A stretch of DNA of 64,000 bases from Closterium sp. NIES-65 (lineage: Eukaryota; Streptophyta; Zygnematophyceae; Desmidiales; Closteriaceae): NCBI GenBank assembly GCA_948144175.1, contig CANXME010002275.1:1182001-1246000 (forward strand), written 5' to 3'. Both the position numbers and the translations under genes were made by a program. This document shows, one piece after another, positions 4,361 to 59,529 of the stretch. The notes below the pieces were generated by a model. That model was not told the DNA's origin, ran no database searches, and saw nothing but the letters and a program-made list of their open reading frames with translations. How positions within the stretch are numbered: position 1 is the first letter of the stretch; the number at the start of each line of letters is the position of its first letter.

Positions 4361-4362
4361 CC

Positions 4363-8300: not shown

Positions 8301-8372
8301 GTTCACTTGCTCACTTCTTGACCTTGCTTGTACTGTCACATATATATACTCCTGCTCTTGCTTGCTTAGCCT

Positions 8373-8374
<2 letters not shown>

Positions 8375-8412
<38 letters not shown>
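8375..8412. repeat. (TA)n/(TG)n microsatellite
   Basis: About 28 bases of alternating TA followed by a TG run, in the 3' non-coding part of Copia B. Related members (C near 11729, F near 42452, H near 59710) carry shorter TA runs at the equivalent place. Confidence 0.9.
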
Positions 8413-8554
8413 CTCCTGCATGTGAACTGGCCTTTTGGCCTTTGAACTTGTGCTCGGAATGTGTGGTGACTTTGTGATCCACCCTGAGCTTTGCTTTGCT
8501 TTGCTTGACTGGTCTTGTGACCCCTTGTTCTCCCGCACTTTGCCTATGGGGTTG

Positions 8555-8676
8555 TGTCAAATTATAACATTCTGTAGGCTATAGTGGGGTAGCCCATATG
8601 GGGTACACATTTCTAGGGTTGGATACTTGTATCACTTTCATTCCATAGTTCATCCATTCTCGTTCTACTTTCCTCA
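8555..8676 (+). repeat. 3' LTR of Copia B
   Basis: Partner of the LTR at 1799-1920. It is preceded by a purine-rich tract (ctatggggttg), and followed by the target duplication tcaag and then by Gypsy-1 sequence. Confidence 0.93.
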
Positions 8677-11421: not shown

Positions 11422-11553
11422 TGTGAGAATAAGCGAACAGGAATGAATGAACTAGCAGTGAAATGAGTACAAGTAGGAAACCCTAGAATTGTGTACCCCC
11501 TATAGGCTAACCCACTGTAGCCTACACAAGCAGAACATATATAATGTTTGACA
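11422..11553 (-). repeat. 3' LTR of Copia C
   Basis: Plus-strand sequence tgtgagaataagcg to gtttgaca, pairing with 18147-18278. On its inner side lies caccccc, the complement of a polypurine tract. Confidence 0.9.
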
Positions 11554-11763
11554 CACCCCCATAGGCAAAGTGGGGGAGAACAAGGGGTCACAAGACCAGT
11601 CAAGCAAAGCAAAGCAAGCTCAGGGTGGATCACAAAGTCACCACACAGTCCGAGCACAAGAGCAGGGCCAGAGGCCAGTTCACATGCAGGAGTACAGACA
11701 TATATATAAAACTAGACAAGCAAGAGCAGGTATATATATATATATGTCACAGTACAAGTGAAG

Positions 11764-32344: not shown

Positions 32345-35250
32345 ATGGCGACGAATAGAGCCATCTTGTCGCTCACTCTCTGCTGCGTCGTTCTTCTCTG
32401 CTCCGCTGTAGTCGCGCCCGCGTCGCGAGTGGAATCGCGAAAGCTTCAGGAGTGCGTGGACCCTAAAGGCTTATGTCCGGTCATCCCCACAACTGCTTCG
32501 ACTACTCGCGACGTCGCGAATGTTCAGCAATGCGTCGATCAGTCGATCTATTGCAACGGCAGCTGCTGCCAGGTACCCTTCTATTTTGTATTTGTTTTCT
32601 AGCAATTGACGTTCTCTCGTCTGGAGGCACTGTCATTAGCCGTTTTTTAAGAATTGGTTGCATAAGCTGACAGTTTTTTTGTGGTTTGTCGATGATAGAA
32701 AATTAGTTCCAGCTTGGTATCGAACCGTCGACTGTACAGTGAAACCCCCCGTTTTGGCCTTTTGGGTTTCGACCTTATAAGCATGTTTGCAACACGTTTG
32801 ATTTCTGATATATTTCTGGATTCATGTATTTCTACTTTAAAAATTTCCTTCGCATTCTCTCCATTGTTTTTCAGGTTGGGCCCAAGTGCTGCGGTGGGAG
32901 GTGCTGCCTAGGCGGCGAGGAGTTCGGCGTGTCGTGCTGCACGCCCTTCAAACTTAACCCCGCCATCTTCGGCGAATGCTGCCGCAACCAGGAGGGCCGC
33001 TGCTGCGGCGGAAAGTGCTGCGCCCACGCCAACAAGTGCTGCGGGACAACCAAGTTCAACGCGCAGTGCTGCAAGGGCGAGTGCTGCGGCGCCAACTGCT
33101 GCCCGGAAGGCACAGGCTGCTGCGACGGCAAGGCGTGCTGCGCGCGCGGGCAGCGCTGCTGCAAGGGCAAGTGCTGCGATCAGGGCGCGGAGTGCTGCGG
33201 CGGCCAGTGCTGCCCCGTCGGCACCGCGTGCTGCGGCGGCAAGTGCTGCAAGCCCGGCTTCTCCTGCTGCAACGGCCAGTGCTGCGAGATTAAGCTCCAG
33301 CCGCAGTGCTGCACCCAGGTGCTTACCACGGGCTCCGCGCTCCTCAACGCGCTGCTCCCCGCGGCGGCGAAGCCTGGGAAGCCCGGGCCGTCGGAGATCA
33401 TCGGCGCGCTGGGCACGTGCTGCCCGGGAGTGACGGCGGACGGCACGTCGACGGGGCTCCGGTGCTGCGGCACGGCGTGCTGCAAGGGGGGCTCCGTGTG
33501 CTGCCAGGACCCGCGCGGAAACCCGCTCAACCGCTGCTGCCCGGAGGGCGCGACGTGCTGCGACGACGGCAAGACGTGCTGCGAGAAGGGCACCAAGTGC
33601 TGCGGCAACGGCAAGTGCTGCAAGGAAGGCACCATGTGCTGCGGCAAGGAGTGCTGCCCGGCCGGCACGCAGTGCTGCGGCGACGGCAAGTGCTGCCCGA
33701 TGATGCAAACCTCCACGGGGATGCAGTCGACATGCTGCGGCAGGACGTGCTGCGACCCGAAGCTCCGTGCGCAGTGCTGCGTGGGGTACGACCGCAAGCC
33801 CGGGGAGTGCTGCGCGGGGCTGGACGCGAACGGCGGAGAGACGGGCAACCAGTGCTGCGGGAAGCGGTGCTGCGGGAAGGGCTTTCAATGCTGCAAGGAC
33901 GCGAACGGCATCCCGCTGGACCAGTGCTGCCCCGAGGGCACCCAGTGCTGCGGGTCCACCTGCTGCAAGCCCGGGTACGAGTGCTGCGGCGACGGGCAGT
34001 GCTGCCCTATTCAGAAGGCCGCTTGCTGGAACAACACGTGCTGTGACGTGACGCTGAAGCCGCTGCGGTGCGCCATTAAGGGCACGGATGATCAAGGGCA
34101 GACGGTGGAGCTGCAGGGGGCTTGCTGCCCTGCTGCGACTTCCACTGGCGCGGCGACGGGCAACCAGTGCTGCGGGCGCAAGTGCTGCCTCAAGAGCGAC
34201 ACGTGCTGCACAGACAGGGAGGGCACCCCCACGGAGACCTGCTGCCCCGAGGGCAGCCAGTGCTGCCAGGACGGCAAGACGTGCTGCAAGAAGGGCACCG
34301 TGTGCTGCGGCGACGGCAAGTGCTGCCCGGCTGAGACGTTCTGCTGCAAGCCCACCATCGACGTGGCTGGCAACGCCAAGGAGTTTGCCATCGCCATGCT
34401 GGGTCGGTCCGTGGGCATGCTGGCGAGGAAGCCCAAGCAGGATGTGGCGGGCGTGCAGTGCTGCAAGGTGGGCGACAGCTGCTGCGCTGAGGGCACGTGC
34501 TGCCCCAAGGGGACCCAGTGCTGCGGTGGAGGCAAGTGCTGCCCGCTGGACGGCGACTGCTGCGGTGCCACGTGCTGCAAGCCGGGGTTCCAGTGCTGCG
34601 GGCCCAACAAGTGCTGCGAGAGGAAGCTCAAGCCACAGTGCTGCGGTAATTCCTCCCTCACCACCACGGGGACGCCGCCGGCTATTGACTGCTGCCCCAT
34701 GCTGAACGTTGATGGGAAAGAGACGGGCAATGAGTGCTGCGGGTCGGCGTGCTGCATGGGCGGCACCAGGTGCTGCGGCGGGCGGACCTGCTGCGACCTC
34801 GCGTCCAAGTCTCTCTGCTGCAGCATCCAGGGGACGACCCTGGGCGGCACGTGCTGTCCGCAAGTGAACCCCACGACGGGTGTCCCCACGGGGCTGACGT
34901 GCTGCGGCGCGCAGTGCTGCAAGGCCGGGCAGGAGTGCTGCGGGAACAAGTGCTGCCCGCCGGATACCAAGTGCTGCGGCGACCAGTGCTGCCCCAAGGA
35001 GCGCAACCACTGCTGCGGCTCCACCTGCTGCAACCCCCTCACCAAGCCCAAGTGCTGCGGTGCTGCGTCGGCGGATGGGACTGTGGGCGCCATGGAGTGC
35101 TGCCCGAGTGTGGACCTGCTGGGGCGGGAGCTGGGCACAATCTGCTGCGGCAAGCAGTGCTGCATGCCCCCGGGCAATGGCGTCCCGGCACAGTGCTGCA
35201 AGAGCGATGCTGGCGAGGAGATCTGCTGTGATGCTACCACGGGGCAGTAG
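32345..35250 (+). CDS. predicted secreted CC-dipeptide-repeat protein (867 aa, two exons)
   Basis: Exons 32345-32572 (76 codons) and 32875-35250 (791 codons plus stop), joined in phase 0 by a GT-AG intron. Residues 1 to about 27 form a signal peptide (MATNRAILSLTLCCVVLLCS, then AVVAPAS), so export to wall or matrix is likely. I count about 88 Cys-Cys pairs and two single Cys in exon 2, spaced mainly CC-x3-CC, CC-x4-CC and CC-x5-CC (CCPEGTQCCGDGKCC type). About six larger modules each end in a KL(K/Q)PQCC-like motif and resume with CCP...TGNQCCG. Two Cys-free spacers of about 35 residues lie near 33310-33415 and 34350-34455. CC spacing recalls granulins, but the iteration is denser and no granulin unit fits cleanly. 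A structural disulfide-rich coat or metal binding are guesses. Cys is almost always TGC. No family recognised. Its 3' 1.5 kb recurs at 48331. Confidence 0.82.
32573..32874 (+). other. intron of the CC-repeat gene (302 bp)
   Basis: Donor CAG|GTACCC at 32573; acceptor TTTTTCAG|GTTGGG ending at 32874 with a T-rich tract before it. AT-rich against strongly GC-rich exon 2. Phase 0, and it separates the signal-peptide exon from the repeat exon. The frame is open into both intron ends, so splicing rests on the splice signals and the composition change. Confidence 0.78.
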
Positions 35251-35704
35251 GAGCGAGATTGGGGCGCAGAGAATGGTGGAGTGAGTGTTTTTGAGGATGT
35301 TTGAGCAGGGAAGAGTTGCTTGCAAGAGCAGTGGAGATGTGAAGTGCATAGGCTGCTGCTGCTGCTGACTTGTTTTTTCTCTGCTTTTTTGTCATGGAAG
35401 TTTGTAGCCAGCGTCTGTTTCATGCCAGTGCTCTATTCTAGGTGCGCATGCTTTTGTCCTTACCTTACGGTATTCCCTTAGCTAGTGCGTACAGCCGTGT
35501 TGCTTTTGTGCTTACTTCTGTACCCCCCAATAGTCCCCACTTGGGGTGTCTAAGAATCTGTTCGGGTTCAGGGTGCTAATTAAAAACTGGATTTTTGCTA
35601 CCGTATGGCCCCGGATATAAGCGCAGGCCTATAATAAGCGCATGCGCTTGTATCTGGAGCAATGCGCTTATGGCCGATCCTCATTTATAAGCGCATGTAG
35701 AGTA
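35251..35704 (+). other. 3' flank of the CC-repeat gene with palindromic block
   Basis: Probable 3' UTR and downstream sequence; I see no strong polyadenylation signal. At 35606-35700 a palindromic block repeats ataagcgca and its complement tgcgcttat (for example aataagcgcatgcgcttgta), resembling the termini of a small inverted-repeat DNA transposon. Copia E is inserted at its right edge. Confidence 0.6.
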
Positions 35705-36104
35705 TGTTGGGCTGAGAATTTCAGCCTTAGGATCTTTGCAGAGAATAGGCTAGTAGGTGCTAGAGTAGCACAGCGGAAGACTTGAGTGAATGTACTTGTG
35801 CTGGTATGTGAGAACAAGTAATTGATTAAAGCAAAGAGCATACAGGAATATATAGGAAAGATAGATTACAGGAAGCGGTTATGTTTATCGAGACGCGTAA
35901 CGCTTCGACTATCGAGGCGGTTACTGTTCACTCAAGCGTCGCTTGCTGTTACGTAACCTCCAGGCGGGTACAGCTCGCAACCTCCAGTTGCGGTTTGATG
36001 TGGTACGCGCCTTTTCGACTTCATACCCCTTTTGTTGTGCTTCAGTATCGGGTGAGGTTCGATACTACAGAAACGCACTAAGTCATGCGTTTATATTCCC
36101 AACA
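35705..36104 (-). repeat. 3' LTR of Copia E, copy 1 (400 bp)
   Basis: Plus-strand tgttgggctgagaattt to attcccaaca. The same sequence is at 50287-50686; the 5' LTR of the complete copy is at 57471-57870. Confidence 0.92.
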
Positions 36105-36495
36105 CTCCCCTTCGTGTCTGGAGTGTCGACGTGGTTAGCTTCGGTGACGTGGCCCAATCCGGTGAGCAGCATGCAGTACTCGAATTTCCCCTTTGGTAGC
36201 TTCTTGGTGAGATAATCTGCTGCCATCTCGGTGGTCGGGCAGTAGTCCAGCTGGAGTTTTCCCTTCTCAATTTCGTCTTTCACGAAGAAGTATCGCAGTG
36301 CGATATGCTTGGTTCTGTTGGCGAAGCCATTCTTGTTTGCGATCCGTATCGCGGACTGGTTGTCGCAGAAAAGCGAGAAGCTGGGTACTTTCGCAATTTT
36401 CGCTTCTTCCAGCAGTTCGCGCAGGTACAGACCTTCCATGGTAGCGGTGCAGAGAGCAATATACTCTGCTTTAGCAGATGATAGTGTGACGAGTT

Positions 36496-36676
36496 TGTCA
36501 GAATGTCATATTTGTTATCTAGCCTGCAGTGGGGTACTCTATAGCGAGTATAACCCCTTAGGGTTTCATATTTGTATCTCATTGCCTGCTAGTACAACCC
36601 TCTTTTGCCTAACCTCTCGTTGCCTAGCTAGGTTAGTCCTAGCTATGGCTACTATCGTTACCTGCCTATCTTCACA
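36496..36676 (+). repeat. 5' LTR of element G, copy 1
   Basis: TGTCAGAATGTCATATTTG to ATCTTCACA, 181 bp, PBS adjacent. Same family as the solo LTR at 28913-29055. Confidence 0.92.
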
Positions 36677-36876
36677 TGGTATCAGAGCAGTACGCTCCTG
36701 GCCTGTGTGCCTAACCACGTTCCTTCCGCTGCAAATACTACTTTCCCTTACCGACGTGCGCCCCGAGGCGCGCGGCGGTTTTCTGCCCGCCGTGCGCCGC
36801 TCCCGGGAGGCGCTGTGACGGGCGACGGGGACCTCCGCGTCGCCCCCCGTCGCCCGTCGTGGCCTCTGTGCGGCCC

Positions 36877-37055
36877 GTACAGGCAGCGCGCGGCCCGTAC
36901 GGGCTGCGCCAGACCCACGCGCTGCCCGTACGGGCTGCGCCAGGCTCGCGCGCGGCCCGTACGGGCTGCGCCAGGCCCGCGCGCGGCCCGTACGGGCTGC
37001 GCTTGGCCGTCGCGCGGCCCGTACGGGAGACGCCCGACCCGCGCGCGGCTCGGGC
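36877..37055. repeat. 31-bp palindrome-centred minisatellite in element G
   Basis: CCCGTACGGG-type palindromes recur at 36897, 36928, 36959, 36990 and 37021 (gtac positions), exactly 31 bp apart, joined by gctgcgccaggcccgcgcg-like spacers. Confidence 0.9.
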
Positions 37056-37818
37056 TGCATGCGCGCGGCTCGGGCGTCCCTACCAGGCCCGTGGTGGGCC
37101 CGTTTCCTACCTTCCCTGCCCTCCCCGCTGTTCCCAGTCCCTCTACTACCGCCCTACCCCTCCTACTCCCCATTCTCCTACTTTAGGGTTTGGGGGTGAG
37201 GGGTATGGGGGTGACCCTCCTCAGTACCACTCCCTGCTCCTCCTCCTCCTCCGTCTCCTTGTGCTGCAGCTGCCGCTGAGGGGGGGGTGATTGTGGTGGA
37301 GCCGGTGGAGTGATACTAAGGGGGGGGGAAGGGGAGGAGAGCTTGCGGTGTAGCAGTGGGTGTGTGCCAAGGGGAGTAGGACAGTCTGGGGAAGCTGAAT
37401 GGAGGATGCCGATGTGTCGCTAGCAGCACCTGTAGTCCGGGGACTTCGTCCGGTAGCCCAGTCGTAGCCAGCTGTGCCAGCCGCCCGTGGGTCCGTTGCT
37501 CGTCTGCCGCTACTTTAGCCGCGGGGCCAGTTACTCCTGTAGTCCGGGGGCTTCGTCCGGTAGCCGCTGTGCCAGTCTGCCTCCTGTTGCCCGTGTGTCT
37601 GCAGCTTCATCCGTCACCTCCTATCTCCTCTCCTCTCAGTCTCTCTCCTCCTCCTCACTTGCCCGTTGTGACTACCTCTAGCTTTTCTTATAACTGTGAA
37701 CTTTATACTACTGCTGCTTGAACTTGTGCTCAGACTGTGTGGTGACATTGTGATCCACCCTGAGCTTGTTCTGTTTTGCTTGCTCTGCTGATTACACCCC
37801 ACTTTGGCTATGGGGGTG

Positions 37819-37999
37819 TGTCAGAATGTCATATTTGTTATCTAGCCTGCAGTGGGGTACTCTATAGCGAGTATAACCCCTTAGGGTTTCATATTTGTAT
37901 CTCATTGCCTGCTAGTACAACCCTCTTTTGCCTAACCTCTCGTTGCCTAGCTAGGTTAGTCCTAGCTATGGCTACTATCGTTACCTACATATCTTCACA
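37819..37999 (+). repeat. 3' LTR of element G, copy 1
   Basis: Partner of 36496-36676 with two differences near its end. Followed by target duplication gagtt and then Copia E RT on the minus strand. Confidence 0.92.
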
Positions 38000-40900
38000 G
38001 AGTTCCTGCTTACTTGATTGCCAGGAGATAGTTCCGACGGGCTCGAGACGGTAGACGTAGCCGGTGCGGGAGCGACGATCGACACGATCAGCAGCGTGAT
38101 CAGCGTCGACGTAACCGAGTAGTTTTAGGTCGGTCGTCGTGCTCTTGTGATACGTTAAGCCAACTGTTGGCGTCGAGATGAAGTAGAGAAGGGCACGGTT
38201 GAGTTCCTTGAGGTGACGTTGTTTTGGGCGCTTGAGGTAGGTCGCTAGCTGGCCGGCGCTGTAAGATAAGTCCGGTCGGCACGTAACGGCGGCAAAGAGT
38301 AGGCAGCCCAGTTTCTGTTGATATTCCTGGATTCCGGCAGACGGCAGTAGGTTGGTTTCTTCAGTTGGGTCGGGCGATAGGTGACTGTAGGGTGTTGCGA
38401 CGTGCGTCGGTGTGAAGCAGAAGCGTTCGGCGATAGTGCTTGCGTATTTTGAGGCGCTGAGATGAATGGCGTTGTCTTCGTCGAGAATGTTGAGCCCTAG
38501 GTACTGCGTGACGTTGGGTGAGACTGTGAGGGAGAGATCCGTCTGAAGCTCCTTTTCGAACCAAGTGACGATAGTGGTAGTTGATCCGATGTAAAGTAAG
38601 TCGTCGACGTAGAGGATTAGCAAGACGTAGTCGTTGTCGTGAGTGGAGCGATACATGCCCTGGTCATGGGGCAGTTGGTTGAATCCGATACGTTTAAGTC
38701 GTGCGTGCAGGTACTGCTGCCAGAGTCGCGGTGCCTGTTTAATTCCGTACAGTGATTTAAGTAGTTGATAGACGCGGGAAGGGTCGTCGACGAACCCGTG
38801 GGGCTGTTCAACGAAGATTTCGGCGTCGACTGGGGCGTACAGAAAAGCGTTGGCGACGTCGATTTGTCGGAGTGGGCGGCGACGTGAGGCGGCAATGGGG
38901 AGGAGAATGCGTAGGGAAGTATGTCGACTGACTGGTGCAAAAGTTTCAGTGAAGTCGCGACCAAACTCTTGGTCGAATCCACGGACGACCCATCGAGCTT
39001 TAAATCGTTCGATGGTTCCGTCGGAGTTGGTTTTGATCCGGAATACCCATTTCTCGGAGAGAATGGGTCTGTCTTGTGCGAGTGATGCAGGAACGATCTT
39101 CCAGGTGTTGCGGTCTGATAGCGCTTTTAACTCCTTTTCCATGGCTTCGCGCCATTTTTCTTTGTGTTCCCCCCCTCAGAGCCTGCTTGACAGAGCGAGG
39201 CTCTTCAGGTGGCGTCGAAGGCCCGTGCACTGCAGCGACGAGTCCCAGGACTTGGAGTCCGCTGGGGGTGTGACGGTTCAGCAAGGGATCCTCGGGATAG
39301 ACTGCTTCGTCTCCCGCTTCAGGATCAGGTGCGAATCCGGGGCCGTATCGTTCAGAGATGTCGGTGTTGACGGGTTGGGGTGTTACGTAACCAGTGTCGG
39401 CGAATTGGTAGTAGACATCGGCATTGATGCTGTCGCGAGGATTTTCCTCATCCATGGGGATTGGGACGGAACAGTAGGGAAGGGGTCCAGCAGCTTCGGA
39501 GGCGCCGTCGACGTTTTCTTCTTCCCAGTCAGCAGCGTCGGTGGGTGAAGCGAAGGCTCGGGAACCAGAAAATCCGCTGGTGGGGTCGACGTGGCGTGCG
39601 ATGTTGTCCAGGTAATGGTTGAGGGTGAGTCGCTCGTAGAAGATAACGTCACGTGCTGCTACTGTTTCCTTTTTGTGGACGTCGAAGATTCGCCAGGCTT
39701 CGTAATGTTTTGCCAGCCCGAGGTGTAGACCCCACTGTGCACGTTGCGAAAATCTCCCTGCGCGTGCAGTGTGTGGGCGGTACTGTACCATACACCCAAA
39801 AACTCGTAACATTTTTGTGTTGCCCAGCTTCCCAGTCCACAACAGGTGCGGAGATGCGTTGTTGGGTAGTGAAGACGAGGACAGCAAGTTGTGCAGGAGG
39901 ACAGCGTGGTCCATCGCTGCTGGCCATTCTGAGTTGGGCAGTTGTGTTCCACGTAGCAGCTTTCGCATGGTTGTCTGCAGGGTCCTGTTCATCCTTTCTG
40001 CCACACCCTGCTGTTGGTGAGCGTAAGGAAGAGAGATGAGGCGTTTGATGCCTCTTTCTGCCAAGAACTGTTTGAAGCGATGTGACTGGTATTCCATCGC
40101 GCCATCTGACTGAAAACTCTTCAGTTTTACTCCCGATTCTCTTTCAGCGACAGGTAGCCAGGCTGTGAAGGCTTCTAGAGCCATGTCTCGTGACGGTAAG
40201 TTGACGTGCCAGACATATCGCGTTGCGGCGTCGATGAAGGTGATGACGTAGTTCAGATCTTCACGTCCTTCAGTTCGAGGTATGTATAGTATGTCGCTGT
40301 AGACTTTCTCGAGTGGTTGATAAACGGGGGCGCTCGGATTGTGGTGTGACGGGAACGGTTGGTGAGGCAGATCTGCTTCCGGGCAGATGAAGCAGGTGCC
40401 GCGTGGTCGCTCGAGTTCACGTCCGTTGGGAAGAAGTAGGGCGTTCTTGTCTAACACTCCTGCTCGTATGGTGTTATAAAGTGTTTTGTTTCCAGGATGT
40501 CCAAGACGTTGATGCCAGATGTCTTCGGAGGCGCTGTGACCGATGGAGCGTTGATAGAAGTCTGCGTTGGCGAAGAAGGCGGTGTGTGTTGCTGCACTTC
40601 GATGAACGGCGCGTGGTACTGGTGTTAACTGTTGGGCGGCTGTCGGTGGCGTGTCGATGATGAGAGGTGGTGGCGCGACGGAGGGACCGGGCTGTGGAGT
40701 TTCGGAAGGTGGTTCCACGACGATGGTTGGTTCTTCAACTGCAGGTTCGGTGGTTGTTGGTGCTGTGTCGGGTGCAGTTGTTGTTTCGATGACGGGTGCT
40801 GACTCAGGTGTTGTTGCTTGTGTTTGCAGGACGGCAAACGCGTTGGTGCGTTCAGCTTCGCGAATGGTACGGGAGTACCAAAAGCCTTCGGGACTGAAGT

Positions 40901-42136
40901 TCGGGTCAAGATCTGGCGGGTGCGTCCAAGGTGCGAGGGCGACTATGCCGTCGCTGTCGGCGGTGCCTTTGTCGGGGACGAAATCAAGAACGAAGACGTC
41001 ATCTTGTTGGATTGCGCGGCCGATGAAGACCCCCCTTTTTCCGTGGTAAAGACGGATTTCCCGGGCGTCGGAGTCACACTCCAGGTGAATGCCTTTCGAC
41101 ATGAGTTGGCTGACGCTCAGCAAGTTGAAACCAAGGTTGTCGACGACGAGTACTTTGTTTAACTGAAGAATGACATTCGTTTCGTTCGACTGAAGCTCCA
41201 CGATTCCTTGCTTGTCGGTGCGCAGGTTTTCGTTATTGGCGACGGTAATGATAACATCTCGCGGAAGTCGTCGTTCGCGTTGAAGAAATCGTGATGAAGA
41301 ACACATGTGGTGACCACAGCAGCTGTCGAGGAACCATGTGTCGGGTCCAGTGGGTGTACTATTTGCGACGGCGGCATATGTCGGATTCACATTGAAGGAT
41401 GACGGTGGCAATGATGGTCGCTCGTCGGGACTGTAAGTTGGTGGTGAATTGGTAATGCACGAGTCAATGTTTGACTCTGTTGTTCGTGCCATGGCGACGA
41501 TTCTTGATGTCTGTGCAGGTCCCGAAGTGGAAGTTGATGGTCGCGTTGAAGTAGTCGTTGAGGCGGTCGCGGGTCGTTGTTGAGTTGACGCGATGTGAGG
41601 AGGTGCTGGTCGCAGAGGACGAGAGAATGGTGCTGGTTGTCGTTGTTGCTGAGGGCAGTTGAAGCGTGTATGTCCTGAAGTCCGACACAGATGACAGTAA
41701 GGAGGTACGTGTCCTCGATTTTGGTAACGTGGCTGTCGTCGATTGGTGTAAAGAACGTCTGGTTGATGATGCCTTTTGTTGTTGCGTTCTTTGAACAGGT
41801 CCATTTCCTGCTGCTCGGCGTGAAGTTCGGCGCAGAGATGCATTTCGGAGAGTCGACCGTGAGCGCGAAGAAGTGAACGGGTGGTACGCCATTGAGGTCC
41901 AAGGCCGGCAAGAACGACGGTTACGAAAGCTTCTTCAGATAAGTTTCCTCCGCAACGAATAAGTCTGTCGCGTAGTCCTTGACAACGACTGATGTAGGGC
42001 ATGGCCTTTTCTCCAGGTTGCATTTGAACTGTTGTCAGTTGTGCCATGAGTCGGCTTTGTGTAACGCTGTCGGATGCTTGATGGATGCTTCGCAGATGCT
42101 GATAAGCGAGTTCCGCAGAGTTTGCGTAGTTCCGGT

Positions 42137-42267
42137 TGAGAAGAATTGAACGAGAATGAAATGAGTATGAACGAAGTGAGTACAAATAGGAAACCCTAAT
42201 TGGGTTGTACCCCCTATGGGATACCCCACTATAGCCTACACAAATAAGTAAGCTATATGTTCTGACA
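42137..42267 (-). repeat. 3' LTR of Copia F (131 bp)
   Basis: Plus-strand tgagaagaattgaacg to atgttctgaca. Same length as and closely similar to the H LTR at 59399-59529. Its left flank ccggt is the E target site, seen uninterrupted at 56714-56718. Confidence 0.88.
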
Positions 42268-45084
42268 CACCCCCATAGGCAAAGTGGGGGAGAACAAGGG
42301 GTCACAAGACCAGTCAAGCAAAGCAAAGCAAAGCTCAGGGTGGATCACAAAGTCACCACGCATTCCGAGCACAAGTTCAAAGGCCAGAAGGCCAGTTCAC
42401 ATGCAAGATCATATATAGAGGTATACAAGAGTCAAGTAAGCAAGAGCAAGGGTATATATATGCGAAGGTACAAGCAAGGTCAAGAGGAGAGCAAGTGAGG
42501 CAAGACATGCACAAGACCCAACTGCGTGCAGCAACGCTGATGATCACAAGGCGCAAGTGCCTTGGTGAAGACATCAGCAGTGTTGGCCTCAGAGGCCACG
42601 TACGCAAGTCGCAACTGTCCACGCTGCTGTAGCTCACGAGCAAGAAAGTAGCGGAGAGCAATGTGCTTCGTTCTGTGCTCCAGTCGCTGCTCTCGACACA
42701 AGGCCAGCATGGCCTTGTTGTCTACGTACAGGACTGGAGGAGAACGAGGCTGCTCTCCAAGGTCGGTCAGCAGGTAGGTGAGCCAGCGTAACTCCTGTGC
42801 AGCCATAGCCCCAGCGTAGATCTCAGCCTCACAACTGGAGCCGAGAACAGAAGACGAGCGGGTAGCCCGCCACGAGACAGAGCCGGAACCAAGGCTGAAG
42901 GTGTAACCCTGTGACGACTGCTGCGTAGCCTGGTCGTCAGCCCAAGAAGCGTCTGCGTGCCCAGTGAGGACCACTGGACTGCGCCCTCCAAGCACTAGCC
43001 CCATGCCCGACGTACTGCACAAGTAGCGCAACACCCTCTTCGCTGCAGCCATGTGCTCTGGTCGGTGTCTCCCAGGAGCAACAAAGCGTGCGAGAATGCT
43101 AAGAGGGTATGCGAGGTCAGGTCGTGTGCAGGTCATCAGGTACATGAGGCAGCCAACAAGCTCTGCAAACGGGCCACTCGACTCTACGGACTCATCCGAA
43201 GGCAGAGCTGAGAGCGAGTGGCGAGTAGGCAGAGGAGTGGCCTGAGGCGAGGAGTACGTGAAGCCGAAGCGCTGAAGGACCTGCTGCACCATGTGTGACT
43301 GAGTCAGGGTAATGGTGCGGCGTGCTCTGTCCCGGGTGATCTGCAAGCCAAGGTAGCTGCGCAGTTCACCCAGGTCAGTGCACGTGTGTCTCTTCTGCAG
43401 CTCAGACTTCACGTAGGCGAGTCCAGCAGTGTCAGCTGTGGCAAAGACCAAGTCGTCGACGTACACGAGGATGTAGAACGGCGGCAGAGAGGTGTCGGTG
43501 CGCAGAAACAGCGACGGGTCGGCAGTAGAAGGAGCAAACCCAAGTGCCGCGAGCGTAGTCCTCAGTGTGTCGTGCCACTCACGTGGCGCCTGGCGGAGAC
43601 CGTAGACTGGACGCCGGAGACTCCACTGGGTACCAGGAGGGAAAGACCCAGTGAAGCCAGGTGGGCGACGCAGCCAGATCTCCTCGTGCAGGCTGCCCTG
43701 CAAGAAAGCTGTGCTGAAGTCGAGAGAGTGCAGCTCGTAGTCACGGTGAGCAGCAACGTGCAGCAGAACCCGAAGAGTGGTCATCTTCGGGGTGGGGGAG
43801 AAGGTCTGAAAGTAGTCAACCCCCTGCCGCTGACTGAAGCCACGAGCCACATAACGCGCCTTGAAGACAGGCGGAGAGCCCGGCGGTCGCTTCACCCTGA
43901 AAATCCACATGCCACTGACGATGTTCGCCCCAGGAGGGGGAACAGCGTCAACGTAGGTGCCTGTGGACTTCCAGGAAGCCATCTCTGCATCCATAGCTGC
44001 CTGCCACTGAGAGGAGTAGGGACCCTCTATCGCCTCCGCGTAAGAGCGCGGAGTCGGGATGTCTGGTGCATCCGGGTCTCCCTCAGGGGCTAGCAGTACA
44101 GACGCGAGACGAGGTGAAGCGGCGGCCAGACATTGGAACTCCTCTTGCCTGTCCTCAAGGACGTCCGTGCCAAGGGCACACTCACCCCCGACGGACGGAG
44201 GACAGGCGGACTCAGACTCAGTGACAAGACGAGCAGCGTAGTCTAGACGACAGCGCGTAGCAAAGTCGACAAGCTCAGTGACAAGGGCAGACGCAGCAGA
44301 CGACTCGAAGGAAGGGTCAGTGACAGCAGTAGCAAGGAGACGCGTGACAGTAGGACTGGCAGCACGAAGAGAGTCCGACTCCGGGTCGGCAAGAGCAGGA
44401 AGAGAGGAAGCAGGAGGAGAAGGCAAAGGGGCACGCAGAGGAGCAGTGGACGGACGCAGTGACATCCGGTGCGTGCCAGGGACAGGAGGAGGACGCTGAC
44501 GCGACCCGCGACCACTAGTGCGCTCAGTACGAACAGGCGACACGGGACGAGACGCAGGCTCACGACGCTCAGTAAGACCTCCAGTCGGACCAGCGTAGGG
44601 AGAAGGAGCAGGCAAAGGGGAGGCAGGCTGTAGCTGTGGCTGTGACCGGACAGGCTGCGGACCCTCTAAGGGAGGAGGAGGAGGTGTAAGACCAAGAACC
44701 TGCTGCAGGAGCGGAACGAAGTACGGTCGGGGCCGCGCGGCGACGCCAGAAACAGCAGGAACAGCACCAGCAGCCCCGGCAGGAGCACCCACTCCAGCAG
44801 CACCTCCAGCAGCACCACCAGAAGCTCCAGAACCTCCAGCAGCAGCACCAGGAGCACTGTCAGTCGGACCGCCAACGGCAGGCTCAGCGCCAACACCCTC
44901 AGCAGTACCAGCTCCAGGAGAACTCTCAGACCGAGCAGCTCCAGCACCCACAGTACGAGCACCGGCGGGACGCGCGGCAGCAGTACCCTCTGCAGCCGAA
45001 GAACCACCAGCACCAGCAGCACGCCTCCAGCGCCTGGCAAACCACTCACGCAGCTCCTGTGGGGAGAGTGGCTCCCGGCGAGAC

Positions 45085-45360
45085 GAAGCACCCCCAGGCT
45101 CAGCACCCCCCGGCTCAGAACCCTCAGGCTCAGCACCCCTAGGCACAGCACCCCCAGGCTCGGCACCTCCAGGCTCAGCACCCCCAGGCACAGCACCCCC
45201 AGGCTCAGCACCCCCAGACTCCGCACCCCCAGGCACAGCAACCCCAGGCTCGGCACCCCCAGGCACAGCACCCCCAGGCTCGGCACCTCCAGGCTCAGCA
45301 CCCCCAGGCTCAGCACCCCCAGACTCCGCACCCCCAGGCTCAGCTCCCGCAGCAGCACCA
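45085..45360 (-). repeat. 15-bp-based minisatellite in Copia F pol linker
   Basis: Many tandem copies of a 15-bp word (plus strand ggctcagcacccccа-like, encoding GAEPG/GAESG/GAVPG) between integrase and RT. The number differs between B (6070-6190), C (14330-14800), F and H (62340-62600). Confidence 0.85.
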
Positions 45361-47399
45361 GAGTCACCAGTGACCTCGACAGGCTCGACCGCGTCTACCT
45401 GGGACACACCTGAAGGGGCAGGACCCTGAGGGGGGAGGGGGACTACCGGGGGGGGACCTGGTACCAAGAAGAGCGGGGGTGGGGGGAGGAACGGAGTGCG
45501 GTAGGGGAAGAGGCGGTAGTAGGGTACCGACTCGTCGAACGTGACGTCCTGGGAGGACAGAACACGTCGAGAGGTGGGGTGGTAAAACTGCCACCCAGGG
45601 GCGTCGGGGGGGAACCCCAGGAAGACGCAGGGAGAAGCACGAGGGGACAGCTTGTCCGCAGACAGGTCGCGAACAAACGCCCGAGATCCCCAGACCCGGA
45701 ACGCCGACGCATCGCCAACCTTCCCCGTCCACAGCAGGGCTGGGGAGGTCTCCGGTCGAGAGACCCTGGGGTGGAGGTTGATCTGGTGCGCAGCGTACCT
45801 GACCGCAAACGTTCACAGAAAATGGGGAGCACCCGCATGCATCATGGACGTACGAGCGACGTCCATGACCATGCCAATGCGGCGCTCAGCAATCCCATTC
45901 TGCTGTGGTGAGTCCGGAAGCGTGAAGGTCTGACGGATGCCTCGCGCACGACAGTAGGCACTCAGGAGGCCAGAGGAGAACTCTCCGCCTCTGTCCGAGT
46001 GCAGACGCAAAACAGGGAAGTCAGAGCCAAAGCTCCTCCGAAGCTGGAGACGAGCTGCGCGGATCCAGTCGATCAACACCTCACTGACCTCACCCTTGCT
46101 GCGCAAGGGGAAGACTGTGGTGTAACGCGAGTAGTCGTCAACCACCAGCAGGAAGTAGCGCTCCTGACCCTGTCCACGGACGCGGGCTGGGCCCCACACG
46201 TCCATGTGAAGCGTCTGCAACGGGGCCTCTGTCGGAGGAAACTGGGAGGAGTGAGGGGCAGCACGCTGGCGCCCCTTGACACAGGGGACACAGGTAGGGC
46301 CAGGGCCCGGAGGAAGGGGAGGGAGAGACCGGGGAAGACCAGACACAAGGACTCGCGAGGCCATGCCTCTGAGCCGAAGCAGAGAGGGGTGGCCAAGGCG
46401 GTGGTGCCAGAGGAGGGTCTCGTGAGACAGACGACGACACGAGCAGGGGGCAGACTCAGGACCAGACCTGGACGCTGCAGCAAACACCTGACCAGACGAA
46501 GGGACCCTACCAGACTTAGCACCTGGAGGAGAAGCAGTGGTCAGTGTGTACAGGCTCGACCCTGGCCGACGTGTAAACGTAGCCAGGTGGCGACCTGTAT
46601 CCGCCTCCGTGCAGTGAGTCACCCGCTGACGAGCAGGGGTGAACTGGTGGACACCCGCATCCTGGAGGTCAGCACCACTCACCAAGTTCGTCGAGAACGA
46701 GGGGAGGTAGAGACCAGTCAGGGTGCCAGAGGGGGCCGCCGGACACGGGAGGACAGTGGAGAAGCGAGACAGGACAGGCCCCCCAGAGGGGTCAGCCAGG
46801 GACACCGCAACCGGCCGACTCAGCGGCGTGAGAGTGGTGCGGTCCCGAAAGAAGGAGCGAGACGCTCCAGAATCAAGGGTGAAGGTGTGAGAGGCCGAAG
46901 CCGACACAGTACCTGAGAGGGCAGACTCACCAGCACCTGAGAGCACAGACACACTGGCACCTAGAGCAGCAGCCTCACTAGTACCTGACGCGGCAGTACC
47001 AATGCCCGGGTCGGGCGGGAAACACCGGTAACAGTCATCCTCATCACTACCAGTCACAGCATACATAGCAGCGAGAATAGCCTCAAAATCAAGATCATAA
47101 ATAGCTACACCAGCCCTAGACAGCTCTCCCCAGCGGGGGATCTCAGCGGCCTCCGGAAACTGCTGACGCCAGGCGTCGGACAGGCGGCCAAAGCAGCGGC
47201 GGGCTGTGTGGGCGCCGCCACACCTCTCCCCTGCACGGTCATCGGTGCGAAGAACGTAGGGGCAGGGACCAAGCGCACCACCACGCTGACGCTGCAAGTA
47301 CCACTCACGGAGCTGCTGAGGGGCGGGGACGGTGCGAGAGCGCTGCTGCTGCTGTGGCTGCTGCTGCGGATGCTGCTGCTGCTGCTGCTGGCGTTGACC

Positions 47400-47690
47400 A
47401 CCCCCAGAGCTGCTCCGCTGGGACGAGCCACTCCGACCCCCACCTCCACCGCCACCCCCGCCTCCACCGCCACCCCCGTCTCCACCGCCACCTCCCCCAC
47501 CAGGACCGTCGCTCCCACCGCTCCCACCGCCTCCTCCGCTACCACCGCCGCCGCCACCTCCGCCTCCACCGCCCCCACCAGTACCTCCACTCCCGCCACC
47601 ACCCCCACCGCCACCCCCACTCCCCCCGCCACCCCCACCGCCTCCTCCACCGCCCCCTCTAGCTCCACCCGTTCCCTTGCCCCCTTTGCC
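47400..47690 (-). repeat. glycine-codon tract in Copia F gag
   Basis: ccaccgcc/ccacccccg-type repeats encode long glycine runs in Gag on the minus strand, followed by Gln runs (about 47345-47395). Equivalent to 3830-4090 in Copia B. Confidence 0.88.
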
Positions 47691-48330
47691 CTTGCCAGAG
47701 CGGCGTCTGCCGCTGGGGGCAGACGCCGCGCCGACCGACTCAAAACCAGTGAGGTCGGCCGCAGCGGCAGAGGCGACAGAGGGCAGCAGGGGGGAAGGAC
47801 CACACCCCTCAAAGATGGGGGTGCGAGGGTCACCCCGAGAGGCCCCTACAGCGACAATACTCTTCTCAGCCGCTAGCAGGGACTCCTCAAGGAGGTCGAC
47901 AGTGAGAGTGGTGGGACAGACAGAGAGAAACTGGTCCCTAACGACACGAAGGGACTCAGGGAGACGGGTGACGAGAAAGTAGAGTGTGATGTACATGGGA
48001 GGAGGGTTCGCAGCGCGGAACTCAGCAGGAAGGGCAGCGCGGTAGCGGGTGTCACTAGCACGGAGGTGGGTAACGAGGTCAGCAACAGTGGGAAAGGAGG
48101 CGAGGTCAGGGAAGAGAAACGGTAGCATGAGGCGGCTAAGGGTAGCGGAGGAAGGGGAGGAGTAGCGTGCAACTACAGCGTCGTACAAGGCCTGAGCGGT
48201 CTTGCACTGACTAAAGTGGGCACGCTCAGAGGAAGGGAGGTGGCGACGCACAGCAAGACGTGCAGCAGCATCGCGGGTCGCCCACTTGGAGCGAACAGCA
48301 GAGTCAGCATCAGCAGGTGGGGCAGGGACA

Positions 48331-49832
48331 GCTGCGACCCGAAGCTCCGTGCGCAGTGCTGCGTGGGGTACGACCGCAAGCCCGGGGAGTGCTGCGCGGG
48401 GCTGGACGCGAACGGCGGAGAGACGGGCAACCAGTGCTGCGGGAAGCGGTGCTGCGGGAAGGGCTTTCAATGCTGCAAGGACGCGAACGGCATCCCGCTG
48501 GACCAGTGCTGCCCCGAGGGCACCCAGTGCTGCGGGTCCACCTGCTGCAAGCCCGGGTACGAGTGCTGCGGCGACGGGCAGTGCTGCCCTATTCAGAAGG
48601 CCGCTTGCTGGAACAACACGTGCTGTGACGTGACGCTGAAGCCGCTGCGGTGCGCCATTAAGGGCACGGATGATCAAGGGCAGACGGTGGAGCTGCAGGG
48701 GGCTTGCTGCCCTGCTGCGACTTCCACTGGCGCGGCGACGGGCAACCAGTGCTGCGGGCGCAAGTGCTGCCTCAAGAGCGACACGTGCTGCACAGACAGG
48801 GAGGGCACCCCCACGGAGACCTGCTGCCCCGAGGGCAGCCAGTGCTGCCAGGACGGCAAGACGTGCTGCAAGAAGGGCACCGTGTGCTGCGGCGACGGCA
48901 AGTGCTGCCCGGCTGAGACGTTCTGCTGCAAGCCCACCATCGACGTGGCTGGCAACGCCAAGGAGTTTGCCATCGCCATGCTGGGTCGGTCCGTGGGCAT
49001 GCTGGCGAGGAAGCCCAAGCAGGATGTGGCGGGCGTGCAGTGCTGCAAGGTGGGCGACAGCTGCTGCGCTGAGGGCACGTGCTGCCCCAAGGGGACCCAG
49101 TGCTGCGGTGGAGGCAAGTGCTGCCCGCTGGACGGCGACTGCTGCGGTGCCACGTGCTGCAAGCCGGGGTTCCAGTGCTGCGGGCCCAACAAGTGCTGCG
49201 AGAGGAAGCTCAAGCCACAGTGCTGCGGTAATTCCTCCCTCACCACCACGGGGACGCCGCCGGCTATTGACTGCTGCCCCATGCTGAACGTTGATGGGAA
49301 AGAGACGGGCAATGAGTGCTGCGGGTCGGCGTGCTGCATGGGCGGCACCAGGTGCTGCGGCGGGCGGACCTGCTGCGACCTCGCGTCCAAGTCTCTCTGC
49401 TGCAGCATCCAGGGGACGACCCTGGGCGGCACGTGCTGTCCGCAAGTGAACCCCACGACGGGTGTCCCCACGGGGCTGACGTGCTGCGGCGCGCAGTGCT
49501 GCAAGGCCGGGCAGGAGTGCTGCGGGAACAAGTGCTGCCCGCCGGATACCAAGTGCTGCGGCGACCAGTGCTGCCCCAAGGAGCGCAACCACTGCTGCGG
49601 CTCCACCTGCTGCAACCCCCTCACCAAGCCCAAGTGCTGCGGTGCTGCGTCGGCGGATGGGACTGTGGGCGCCATGGAGTGCTGCCCGAGTGTGGACCTG
49701 CTGGGGCGGGAGCTGGGCACAATCTGCTGCGGCAAGCAGTGCTGCATGCCCCCGGGCAATGGCGTCCCGGCACAGTGCTGCAAGAGCGATGCTGGCGAGG
49801 AGATCTGCTGTGATGCTACCACGGGGCAGTAG
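48331..49832 (+). pseudogene. truncated second copy of the CC-repeat gene
   Basis: Carries codons 369-867 of the gene at 32345, unchanged as far as I compared, including the stop at 49830-49832 and the same 3' flank. Promoter, signal-peptide exon, intron and the first part of exon 2 are absent. Upstream is Copia F gag in antisense. An open frame runs across the junction from 48216 but would start with unrelated antisense-gag residues and has no signal peptide. Non-functional as a secreted protein unless a new promoter and leader are used; may be an assembly product. Confidence 0.88.
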
Positions 49833-50286
49833 GAGCGAGATTGGGGCGCAGAGAATGGTGGAGTGAGTGTTTTTGAGGATGTTTGAGCAGGGAAGAGTTG
49901 CTTGCAAGAGCAGTGGAGATGTGAAGTGCATAGGCTGCTGCTGCTGCTGACTTGTTTTTTCTCTGCTTTTTTGTCATGGAAGTTTGTAGCCAGCGTCTGT
50001 TTCATGCCAGTGCTCTATTCTAGGTGCGCATGCTTTTGTCCTTACCTTACGGTATTCCCTTAGCTAGTGCGTACAGCCGTGTTGCTTTTGTGCTTACTTC
50101 TGTACCCCCCAATAGTCCCCACTTGGGGTGTCTAAGAATCTGTTCGGGTTCAGGGTGCTAATTAAAAACTGGATTTTTGCTACCGTATGGCCCCGGATAT
50201 AAGCGCAGGCCTATAATAAGCGCATGCGCTTGTATCTGGAGCAATGCGCTTATGGCCGATCCTCATTTATAAGCGCATGTAGAGTA

Positions 50287-50686
50287 TGTTGGGCTGAGAA
50301 TTTCAGCCTTAGGATCTTTGCAGAGAATAGGCTAGTAGGTGCTAGAGTAGCACAGCGGAAGACTTGAGTGAATGTACTTGTGCTGGTATGTGAGAACAAG
50401 TAATTGATTAAAGCAAAGAGCATACAGGAATATATAGGAAAGATAGATTACAGGAAGCGGTTATGTTTATCGAGACGCGTAACGCTTCGACTATCGAGGC
50501 GGTTACTGTTCACTCAAGCGTCGCTTGCTGTTACGTAACCTCCAGGCGGGTACAGCTCGCAACCTCCAGTTGCGGTTTGATGTGGTACGCGCCTTTTCGA
50601 CTTCATACCCCTTTTGTTGTGCTTCAGTATCGGGTGAGGTTCGATACTACAGAAACGCACTAAGTCATGCGTTTATATTCCCAACA
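50287..50686 (-). repeat. 3' LTR of Copia E, copy 2
   Basis: Same as 35705-36104. Differs from the 5' LTR 57471-57870 at three positions (one in the cgggtacag block, two near the end). Confidence 0.92.
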
Positions 50687-51077
50687 CTCCCCTTCGTGTC
50701 TGGAGTGTCGACGTGGTTAGCTTCGGTGACGTGGCCCAATCCGGTGAGCAGCATGCAGTACTCGAATTTCCCCTTTGGTAGCTTCTTGGTGAGATAATCT
50801 GCTGCCATCTCGGTGGTCGGGCAGTAGTCCAGCTGGAGTTTTCCCTTCTCAATTTCGTCTTTCACGAAGAAGTATCGCAGTGCGATATGCTTGGTTCTGT
50901 TGGCGAAGCCATTCTTGTTTGCGATCCGTATCGCGGACTGGTTGTCGCAGAAAAGCGAGAAGCTGGGTACTTTCGCAATTTTCGCTTCTTCCAGCAGTTC
51001 GCGCAGGTACAGACCTTCCATGGTAGCGGTGCAGAGAGCAATATACTCTGCTTTAGCAGATGATAGTGTGACGAGTT

Positions 51078-52581
51078 TGTCAGAATGTCATATTTGTTAT
51101 CTAGCCTGCAGTGGGGTACTCTATAGCGAGTATAACCCCTTAGGGTTTCATATTTGTATCTCATTGCCTGCTAGTACAACCCTCTTTTGCCTAACCTCTC
51201 GTTGCCTAGCTAGGTTAGTCCTAGCTATGGCTACTATCGTTACCTGCCTATCTTCACATGGTATCAGAGCAGTACGCTCCTGGCCTGTGTGCCTAACCAC
51301 GTTCCTTCCGCTGCAAATACTACTTTCCCTTACCGACGTGCGCCCCGAGGCGCGCGGCGGTTTTCTGCCCGCCGTGCGCCGCTCCCGGGAGGCGCTGTGA
51401 CGGGCGACGGGGACCTCCGCGTCGCCCCCCGTCGCCCGTCGTGGCCTCTGTGCGGCCCGTACAGGCAGCGCGCGGCCCGTACGGGCTGCGCCAGACCCAC
51501 GCGCTGCCCGTACGGGCTGCGCCAGGCTCGCGCGCGGCCCGTACGGGCTGCGCCAGGCCCGCGCGCGGCCCGTACGGGCTGCGCTTGGCCGTCGCGCGGC
51601 CCGTACGGGAGACGCCCGACCCGCGCGCGGCTCGGGCTGCATGCGCGCGGCTCGGGCGTCCCTACCAGGCCCGTGGTGGGCCCGTTTCCTACCTTCCCTG
51701 CCCTCCCCGCTGTTCCCAGTCCCTCTACTACCGCCCTACCCCTCCTACTCCCCATTCTCCTACTTTAGGGTTTGGGGGTGAGGGGTATGGGGGTGACCCT
51801 CCTCAGTACCACTCCCTGCTCCTCCTCCTCCTCCGTCTCCTTGTGCTGCAGCTGCCGCTGAGGGGGGGGTGATTGTGGTGGAGCCGGTGGAGTGATACTA
51901 AGGGGGGGGGAAGGGGAGGAGAGCTTGCGGTGTAGCAGTGGGTGTGTGCCAAGGGGAGTAGGACAGTCTGGGGAAGCTGAATGGAGGATGCCGATGTGTC
52001 GCTAGCAGCACCTGTAGTCCGGGGACTTCGTCCGGTAGCCCAGTCGTAGCCAGCTGTGCCAGCCGCCCGTGGGTCCGTTGCTCGTCTGCCGCTACTTTAG
52101 CCGCGGGGCCAGTTACTCCTGTAGTCCGGGGGCTTCGTCCGGTAGCCGCTGTGCCAGTCTGCCTCCTGTTGCCCGTGTGTCTGCAGCTTCATCCGTCACC
52201 TCCTATCTCCTCTCCTCTCAGTCTCTCTCCTCCTCCTCACTTGCCCGTTGTGACTACCTCTAGCTTTTCTTATAACTGTGAACTTTATACTACTGCTGCT
52301 TGAACTTGTGCTCAGACTGTGTGGTGACATTGTGATCCACCCTGAGCTTGTTCTGTTTTGCTTGCTCTGCTGATTACACCCCACTTTGGCTATGGGGGTG
52401 TGTCAGAATGTCATATTTGTTATCTAGCCTGCAGTGGGGTACTCTATAGCGAGTATAACCCCTTAGGGTTTCATATTTGTATCTCATTGCCTGCTAGTAC
52501 AACCCTCTTTTGCCTAACCTCTCGTTGCCTAGCTAGGTTAGTCCTAGCTATGGCTACTATCGTTACCTACATATCTTCACA
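51078..52581 (+). mobile_element. non-autonomous LTR element G, copy 2
   Basis: Duplicated with its host block. Same LTRs (51078-51258, 52401-52581), target duplication gagtt, minisatellite (about 51459-51637) and shared 3' block as copy 1. Identical in position, so it was carried along rather than inserted again. Confidence 0.92.
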
Positions 52582-59398: not shown

Positions 59399-59529
59399 TG
59401 AGAAAACTGAAACGAGAATGAATGAACTATGAATGAAGTGGGCACAAGTACTAACCCTAATTGGGTTGTACCCCCTATGGGATACCCCACTACAGCCTAC
59501 ACAAAAGCATAAGCTATAATGTTCTGACA
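59399..59529 (-). repeat. 3' LTR of Copia H (131 bp)
   Basis: Plus-strand tgagaaaactgaaacg to atgttctgaca, closely similar to the F LTR (42137-42267). Confidence 0.87.

What the first reader, a model, noticed from the sequence alone, without database searches (positions are those of the whole stretch)
32345..35250. Undescribed secreted protein built from about 88 Cys-Cys pairs
The only convincing host gene in the window encodes a signal peptide plus a repeat exon in which nearly all cysteines occur as CC pairs at 3-5 residue spacing, arranged in about six larger modules with a conserved K-L-K-P-Q-CC closing motif and two cysteine-free spacers. I know of no named plant or algal family with this architecture; granulin is the nearest spacing but does not fit cleanly. 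Signal-peptide exon split from repeat exon by a phase-0 intron suggests a modular origin. Possible roles (cross-linked wall or mucilage protein, metal binding) are inference.
Basis: partly seen in the sequence, partly recalled or inferred. Interest (0 to 1): 0.85.

Follow-up and report, generated by a model that had tools for sequence, protein, structure and literature searches.

The report
Secreted protein with cysteine-pair ladder
A plant-lineage genome encodes a selected, apparently secreted protein in which almost every cysteine comes as one of about 90 side-by-side pairs; it resembles a greatly stretched granulin fold and may be a tough disulfide-stitched rod outside the cell.

Summary
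A signal-peptide exon (32345-32572), a 302-bp phase-0 intron and a repeat exon (32875-35250) encode 868 aa. The repeat exon has 178 Cys, 176 of them in 88 CC pairs (2000 shuffles: mean 32, maximum 45). A second full-length copy in the genome keeps the exon junction although its intron has diverged. Between the copies exon 2 shows 35 synonymous and 12 nonsynonymous changes (omega 0.09) and no replaced Cys, so the protein is under selection. A shorter paralogue shares the end of exon 1, the intron phase and module motifs.

No Pfam or NCBIfam cut-off is passed. Best explanation: disulfide-laddered beta-hairpins built like a granulin but with about 90 CC pairs. For: a sub-threshold Pfam Granulin match of one module, profile similarity, granulin AaE as best PDB match of one predicted module (probability 0.87, E 0.14), and two half-lost pairs placed at one granulin-type bond. 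Against: one control not passed (23 of 200), weak Foldseek E-values, no full granulin match for the ladder region, and a bacterial CC-ladder protein aligns better than the genome's own granulin. Works like granulin: likely. Descent from granulin: unproven. Function is inferred.

The parts
32345..32572 (+). exon 1: signal peptide plus C-x6-C ... C-x6-C-x3-CC segment (residues 1-76)
   Evidence: 84% identical exon at C915:710432-710656
32345..32425 (+). putative signal peptide (about 27 aa; cleavage site guessed by eye)
   Evidence: hydropathy maximum 2.99 over 11 residues from residue 13; hydrophobic core kept in the C915 copy
32531..32569 (+). ladder start: single Cys 63 and 70, then the first pair 74-75, like the single-Cys start of a granulin module
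   Evidence: same C-x6-YCNGSCC pattern in the short paralogue
32573..32874 (+). phase-0 intron, GT-AG, 302 bp
   Evidence: same position, phase and length in C915, where the sequence is 64% alike in a forced alignment
32875..35250 (+). exon 2: 791 aa of CC-pair modules, 88 CC pairs, stop at 35248-35250
   Evidence: omega 0.093, 0 of 178 Cys codons replaced versus C915
33082..33312 (+). regular ladder, gaps alternating 3 (once 4) and 5 residues, closing KLQPQCC (residues 146-222)
   Evidence: inside the model of residues 119-222, pLDDT 84.6
33313..33417 (+). Cys-free spacer 1 (35 aa, residues 223-257)
33463..33603 (+). granulin-like module B start (residues 273-319; CC-x3-CC-x5-CC-x10-CC-x5-CC-x5-CC-x5-CC)
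   Evidence: Pfam Granulin 14.6 bits, E 0.039, cut-off 20.9; Foldseek to granulin AaE for residues 273-378
33853..33987 (+). granulin-like module C start (residues 403-447)
   Evidence: aligned with B and D; no Pfam match on its own
34024..34071 (+). two half-lost pairs: Cys 460 (second Cys replaced by W) and Cys 475 (first Cys replaced by R), two elements apart
   Evidence: the alignment of 475 to the closing motif is by eye
34168..34308 (+). granulin-like module D start (residues 508-554)
   Evidence: aligned with B and C; not scanned on its own in Pfam
34348..34458 (+). Cys-free spacer 2 (37 aa, residues 568-604)
48331..49832 (+). 5'-truncated identical copy of the 3' part of exon 2, without exon 1, joined to a copia-like element (so named by eye)
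   Evidence: 100% identity of 33749-42136 with 48331-56718

Best explanation
The gene encodes a secreted protein built like a greatly extended granulin. CC pairs sit in short beta-hairpins; the second Cys of one element bonds to the first Cys of the element two further on, as in granulins, so that successive hairpins are stitched into a stiff rod. Two single cysteines at the end of exon 1 start the ladder, and two Cys-free spacers act as hinges. The likely job is mechanical or protective: a compact, protease-resistant extracellular component (wall, mucilage or spore coat). Shown: gene structure, purifying selection with strict Cys conservation, a second locus and a short paralogue. Supported by prediction: secretion, hairpins, granulin-like module B. 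Inferred: disulfide pattern, rod shape, hinges, location, function. The claim is that it works like a granulin stack; common descent with granulin is a separate, weaker claim.
For: Selection: omega 0.093 in exon 2, 0 of 178 Cys codons replaced; 12 of 47 changes nonsynonymous, binomial p 3e-14. Module B matches Pfam Granulin below the cut-off (14.6 bits, E 0.039). Modules B-D versus five real granulins: hhalign probability 90.4; 0 of 200 controls with permuted non-Cys columns reach the score of 26.7, the highest being 26.2. Predicted module B (pLDDT 79.8): first PDB match granulin AaE, probability 0.87, TM 0.56 by target, 42% identity; 5 of 41 listed matches are granulins or mini-granulins. Ladder segment pLDDT 84.6. 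The only two half-lost pairs are at the second Cys of element n and the first Cys of element n+2, the granulin rule (I-III, II-V, IV-VII, VI-IX; PMC7463432 passages); 89 of 16380 random slot pairs, or 89 of 1416 within four elements, do so. Even Cys number, 184.
Against: Whole exon 2 gives no Pfam match at E up to 10, and of six CC pieces scanned only module B matched Granulin. Permuting loop order reaches the hhalign score in 23 of 200 controls. My own hhalign runs gave lower probabilities: B-D together 75.8; singly B 86.6, D2 49.3, F 21.2, short paralogue 17.4, D 13.8, C 7.9, whole exon 2 6.9, E 5.9, ladder A 1.4. B-D were chosen after seeing the Pfam hit. No Foldseek PDB match has E below 0.001, and most of the 41 matches of module B are other Cys-rich chains. 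The ladder model's nine PDB matches are eight 4-1BB chains and the mini-granulin conotoxin 6ppc. By BLASTP the bacterial ladder protein L288 (45.8 bits, 45% over 94 aa) aligns better than the genome's own granulin (23.1 bits). AlphaFold has seen granulins and can misassign such disulfides (PMC11035057 passages). No expression, localisation or protein data.
Confidence: 0.5

Rival explanations
1. Convergent CC-ladder protein: the repeat grew by tandem duplication of a short Cys-pair motif and resembles granulin only because both use paired cysteines. The hairpin ladder may still be right; descent from granulin is not.
For: CC-x5-CC-x3 ladders occur in secreted-looking bacterial proteins: a 123-aa Victivallales protein (L288 7483-7854 minus; BLASTP 45.8 bits to exon 2) and part of an 813-aa Deltaproteobacteria protein (L287 457-2898 minus; 30.8 bits), found through. 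A moumouvirus protein is the best structural match of the ladder model (BFVD E 7.9e-4, probability 1.00). Loop-order control 23 of 200. The genome's own granulin gives only 23.1 bits.
Against: Module starts B, C and D share detail beyond Cys spacing with granulins; 0 of 200 permuted-column controls reach their score. Foldseek puts granulin first for module B. BLASTP scores between Cys-rich repeats are inflated by composition.
Confidence: 0.4
2. Progranulin-like precursor: modules are cut apart and released as small signalling or defence peptides.
For: Signal peptide, tandem modules and longer linkers resemble animal progranulin as described in PMC4527844 (section 13).
Against: Little: CC pairs run from residue 74 to 222 with gaps of at most 12 residues, leaving few evident cutting places. 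Processing sites were not searched for.
Confidence: 0.15
3. Metal-binding (metallothionein-like) protein.
For: 23% Cys in exon 2.
Against: Apparent secretion signal; apart from CC the shortest gap between cysteines is 3 residues, so no CxC or CxxC; even number of Cys in the mature part; no Pfam match.
Confidence: 0.07
4. Not a working gene: decayed repeat, transposon-borne sequence or assembly artefact.
For: Neighbours are copia-like elements (named by eye) and the 3' part is duplicated at 100% over 8,388 bp; the duplicate lacks exon 1.
Against: Purifying selection, conserved junction and a second locus.
Confidence: 0.03

Closest known systems
Granulin / progranulin (Pfam PF00396)
   Same: CC-pair framework, CCP and CC.D...CC motifs, signal peptide, predicted beta-hairpins, single-Cys start of the ladder, Cys-loss pattern as expected for n to n+2 bonds.
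   Different: About 90 CC pairs in one chain against four in the granulins aligned here; CC where granulin has single Cys; 3/5 spacing; below the Pfam cut-off; no WGCCP or HCCP.
Cysteine protease with C-terminal granulin (this genome: C543, and a match of equal score at C2069)
   Same: Same genome, granulin-type Cys pairs.
   Different: Single granulin over the cut-off (40.5 bits) behind a papain-like protease (recognised by eye in L065); the window gene has no protease part.
CC-ladder proteins of bacteria (L287, L288) and moumouvirus A0A6G6ABL3
   Same: CC-x5-CC-x3 pairs in secreted-looking proteins; L288 aligns over 94 aa at 45%, L287 over 72 aa at 42%; the viral protein has a similar predicted fold.
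   Different: L288 is 123 aa with one simple repeat, L287 has a short ladder in a larger protein; the module ends and exon 1 of the window gene were not seen in them (by eye).
STIG1 (Pfam PF04885)
   Same: Plant secreted Cys-rich protein (recalled).
   Different: 12 matches in this genome, all over the cut-off, none at this gene.

Membership tests
Granulin (PF00396) | Score over the curated Pfam cut-off (20.9 bits) | tested here: not met
   whole exon 2: none at E up to 10; best of six CC pieces 14.6 bits, positive control 44.1 bits; locus not among 25 genome matches
Granulin (PF00396) | 12-Cys motif (PMC4527844 passage) with single Cys at both ends and four CC pairs (layout recalled; seen in A4) | tested here: not met
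   CC pairs nearly throughout; single Cys only in exon 1 and at 460 and 475
Granulin (PF00396) | Stack of beta-hairpins | tested here: inconclusive
   predicted hairpins; granulin AaE first PDB match for module B but E 0.14; ladder segment without full granulin match
Granulin (PF00396) | Disulfides I-III, II-V, IV-VII, VI-IX (PMC7463432) | not testable with these tools
   indirect: double loss at one predicted bond
Granulin (PF00396) | Secretory signal peptide | tested here: met
   hydropathy and conservation only; no dedicated predictor
STIG1 (PF04885) | Pfam cut-off | tested here: not met
Metallothionein | CxC / CxxC motifs (recalled) | tested here: not met
   spacings; no Pfam match
Plant granulin protease | Papain-like domain before the granulin | tested here: not met
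   no Pfam match in exon 2 or in the first 125 residues of the protein

The most novel reading that the evidence does not exclude
A green-lineage counterpart of progranulin, not met in my literature searches: granulin-type modules freed from the protease, fused and stretched into a disulfide ladder of dozens of rungs in one chain, perhaps the longest laddered hairpin stack in nature (no survey was made), used as an extracellular structural rod.
Probability: 0.25. Interest if true: 0.75.

Novelty: new variant of a known kind. Interest (0 to 1): 0.6.

Why it matters
A 2015 survey describes granulin modules in green plants only as single modules on cysteine proteases (PMC4527844, section 13). A separate secreted protein that uses the same CC-pair design with about twenty times as many pairs would show how a small growth-factor-type fold can become a structural material, would offer a natural template for disulfide-stitched rods, and gives a testable candidate for extracellular toughness in a plant-lineage organism. 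If convergent, it adds a eukaryote with a very long chain to a CC-ladder design that also occurs in bacteria.

Tried and rejected
Metallothionein, STIG1 and plain granulin membership were tested and not met (see membership). Weak genome hits of the short paralogue: seven of the lower places were fetched (C1103, C1667, C564, C287, C1729, C1792, C1731); in four no frame passed my filter (60 aa or more, over 7% Cys, two or more CC) and in three the passing frames did not look related. Other places with E above 0.1 (such as C2327, C1673, C2336, C1326, C421, C2273, C2176) were not fetched.

Scans with P0001: 1 stretch in viral contigs and 6 in genome contigs matched a peptide pattern, none confirmed by tblastn. 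These scans find close relatives only and missed L287 and L288. In those 238 loci a loose protein pattern gave 156 frames, which among the 25 shown were mainly poly-Cys low complexity (one, L092 with 59 CC, was not followed); the strict pattern gave 6 frames in 5 loci. I judged two loci (L287, L288) credible and three (L133, L150, L274) chance repeats, by eye.

Organism: at least three kinds of rDNA are in the assembly and parts of those loci read N, so no species is named. The radial-spoke search had no positive control and shows nothing. The viral structure library was searched for the ladder model only.

Papers: PMC4527844, passages and section 13; PMC7463432 and PMC11035057, passages only; all others search listings. 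These eight searches of open-licence PMC showed no paper on such a plant protein.

Full report
What is there. The window lies at C1977:1182001-1246000 of an 874-Mb, 2400-contig genome. The gene consists of exon 1 (32345-32572), a 302-bp phase-0 GT-AG intron and exon 2 (32875-35250); the protein has 868 residues. Exon 2 has 178 Cys, 176 of them in 88 pairs; 2000 composition shuffles never exceed 45 pairs. Of the 5-residue loops 23 of 28 have G third and 18 of 28 begin with P or K; of the 3-residue loops 18 of 22 begin with G (which counts one loop that starts at a single Cys). GC at third codon positions of exon 2 is 0.91, and 175 of 178 Cys codons are TGC.

It is a selected gene. A search of the genome with exon 2 found a second full-length copy (C915, 98% identical) and a short paralogue at three places (C1827, C214, C1714). 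Exon 1 searched by itself finds C1977 and C915 only (2 matches at E up to 10). In C915 the exon-intron junctions are the same although the introns align at only 64%. Exon 1 differs with dS 0.357 and omega 0.21, exon 2 with dS 0.070 and omega 0.093; of 47 changes in exon 2, 12 are nonsynonymous, and none of 178 Cys codons changes residue. The fall in dS from exon 1 to exon 2 (Fisher p 4e-6), with a 97% similar block that starts 21 bp before exon 2 and ends in the 3' flank, suggests that exon 2 was homogenised by gene conversion between two older paralogues. That is an inference; it lowers the number of independent changes.

The short paralogue (L020; 319 aa as spliced by eye) has its own hydrophobic N-terminus, ends exon 1 with C-x6-YCNGSCC like the window gene, has the same phase-0 boundary, and its last exon holds CC modules with ELKPQCC and TG..CCG..CC. 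Two of its three places are 99.95% identical over about 9 kb and the third is about 98% identical. Between L020 and L021 the spliced frame differs at two codons, both nonsynonymous, too few to judge. Decayed tandem copies of its small CC exon lie in its intron.

What family it belongs to. Whole exon 2 matches nothing in Pfam or NCBIfam at E up to 10 and no solved chain at E up to 1. The ladder piece gives five VLDL-receptor and two spider-peptide sequences at E 0.31 to 7.1. Cut into pieces, one of six CC pieces, module B, matches Granulin below its cut-off (14.6 of 20.9 bits, E 0.039), while the genome's own granulin in the same call scores 44.1 bits. A genome-wide granulin search lists 25 matches, three over the cut-off, none at this gene. 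STIG1 gives 12 genome matches, none here.

Granulin-like or not. Choosing modules B, C and D because of that hit (a post hoc choice), their alignment against five real granulins gives hhalign probability 90.4. With my own settings it is 75.8 (score 26.7); permuting non-Cys columns reaches this score in 0 of 200 trials (highest 26.2), permuting loop order in 23 of 200 (highest 30.2). So the likeness goes beyond Cys spacing, but the order of the loops adds little. Single pieces vary from 86.6 (B) to 1.4 (ladder A). By BLASTP the genome's granulin aligns to module B over 24 residues with 23.1 bits, less than the bacterial ladder protein L288 with 45.8 bits; such scores are inflated by Cys-rich composition.

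Structure. With window modules only as alignment, residues 273-378 (106 aa, beginning with module B) are predicted at pLDDT 79.8, pTM 0.58, with serial strands. The first PDB match is granulin AaE (6cku: probability 0.87, E 0.14, TM 0.56 by target, 53 columns, 42% identity); granulin A, carp granulin-1, paragranulin and the mini-granulin conotoxin MiXXVIIA are also among the 41 matches, the other 36 being receptor, follistatin-type, mucin and similar chains. No E-value is below 0.001. Residues 119-222 (104 aa, the ladder) are predicted at pLDDT 84.6, pTM 0.62; the nine PDB matches are eight 4-1BB chains and the same conotoxin. In the viral library a moumouvirus protein matches over 119 columns (E 7.9e-4, probability 1.00, TM 0.68 by query), the only one of six with E below 0.001.

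A natural test of the disulfide rule. In granulins the bonds are I-III, II-V, IV-VII and VI-IX (passages of PMC7463432; VIII-XI and X-XII are recalled): the second Cys of one element bonds to the first Cys of the element two on. The window protein starts its ladder with two single Cys (63, 70), as this rule needs. Its only two half-lost pairs are Cys 460 (second Cys now W) and Cys 475 (first Cys now R), two elements apart: one bond removed cleanly. Random choice of two slots gives this in 89 of 16380 cases, or 89 of 1416 when the two are within four elements. It was noticed after the fact and is one event. The chain ends in full pairs, not in single Cys as a granulin does, so the far end of the ladder is not explained by the rule.

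Wider distribution. P0001 gave no confirmed relative in IMG/VR or GTDB contigs (1 and 6 stretches tested), but that search reaches close relatives only. CC ladders have probably arisen more than once. Eukaryote collections other than this genome could not be searched.

Organism. A papain-like protease with a C-terminal granulin (L065, protease read by eye; granulin by Pfam) and twelve STIG1 matches point to the green-plant lineage; PMC4527844 states that in plants a single granulin module is in all cases linked to the C-terminus of such a protease (section 13). No species is claimed.

Mechanism and verdict. The best reading is a secreted chain of disulfide-stitched hairpins working like an extended granulin, most likely as a tough extracellular structural or protective component. 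Descent from granulin is possible (a canonical granulin sits in the same genome), but convergence is a serious rival. It is novel as an architecture, a new variant of a known kind of fold rather than a new kind.

Noticed in passing
33749-42136 and 48331-56718: 8,388 bp repeated at 100% identity, separated by a copia-like element (42137-48330, named by eye); the second copy starts inside the Cys gene. Either a very recent duplication or an assembly error.
   Followed up: partly
32854-35699 versus L019 5940-8780: Exon 2 and 3' flank are 97% identical between two paralogues whose exon 1 (dS 0.36) and intron have diverged: looks like gene conversion limited to the repeat exon.
   Followed up: partly
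L020 3572-4555 (and L021, L022): Decaying tandem copies of a small CC exon inside the intron of the short paralogue.
   Followed up: partly
L288 7483-7854 (minus): 123-aa secreted-looking Victivallales protein made largely of CC-x5-CC-x3 pairs; aligns to exon 2 at 45% over 94 aa.
   Followed up: partly
L287 457-2898 (minus): 813-aa Deltaproteobacteria protein with a short CC ladder among other Cys-rich repeats.
   Followed up: partly
G000 contigs C19, C1143, C1262: Three different rDNA repeats in one assembly; of 40 scored 5.8S matches, 5 are on C1262, 4 on C1143 and 31 elsewhere with one equal score. May mean a mixed sample.
   Followed up: no
BFVD A0A6G6ABL3: Uncharacterised Borely moumouvirus protein (402 aa) with a predicted fold like the CC ladder.
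   Followed up: no
3001-8676, 11424-16451, 42137-48326, 59399-64000: Four related copia-like retroelement stretches (aligned pieces 84-92% alike), the first inverted to the others.
   Followed up: no
L092 (viral contigs), minus-strand frame of 395 aa: Frame with 59 CC pairs in a virus-collection contig; could be a real Cys-rich protein or a chance frame.
   Followed up: no
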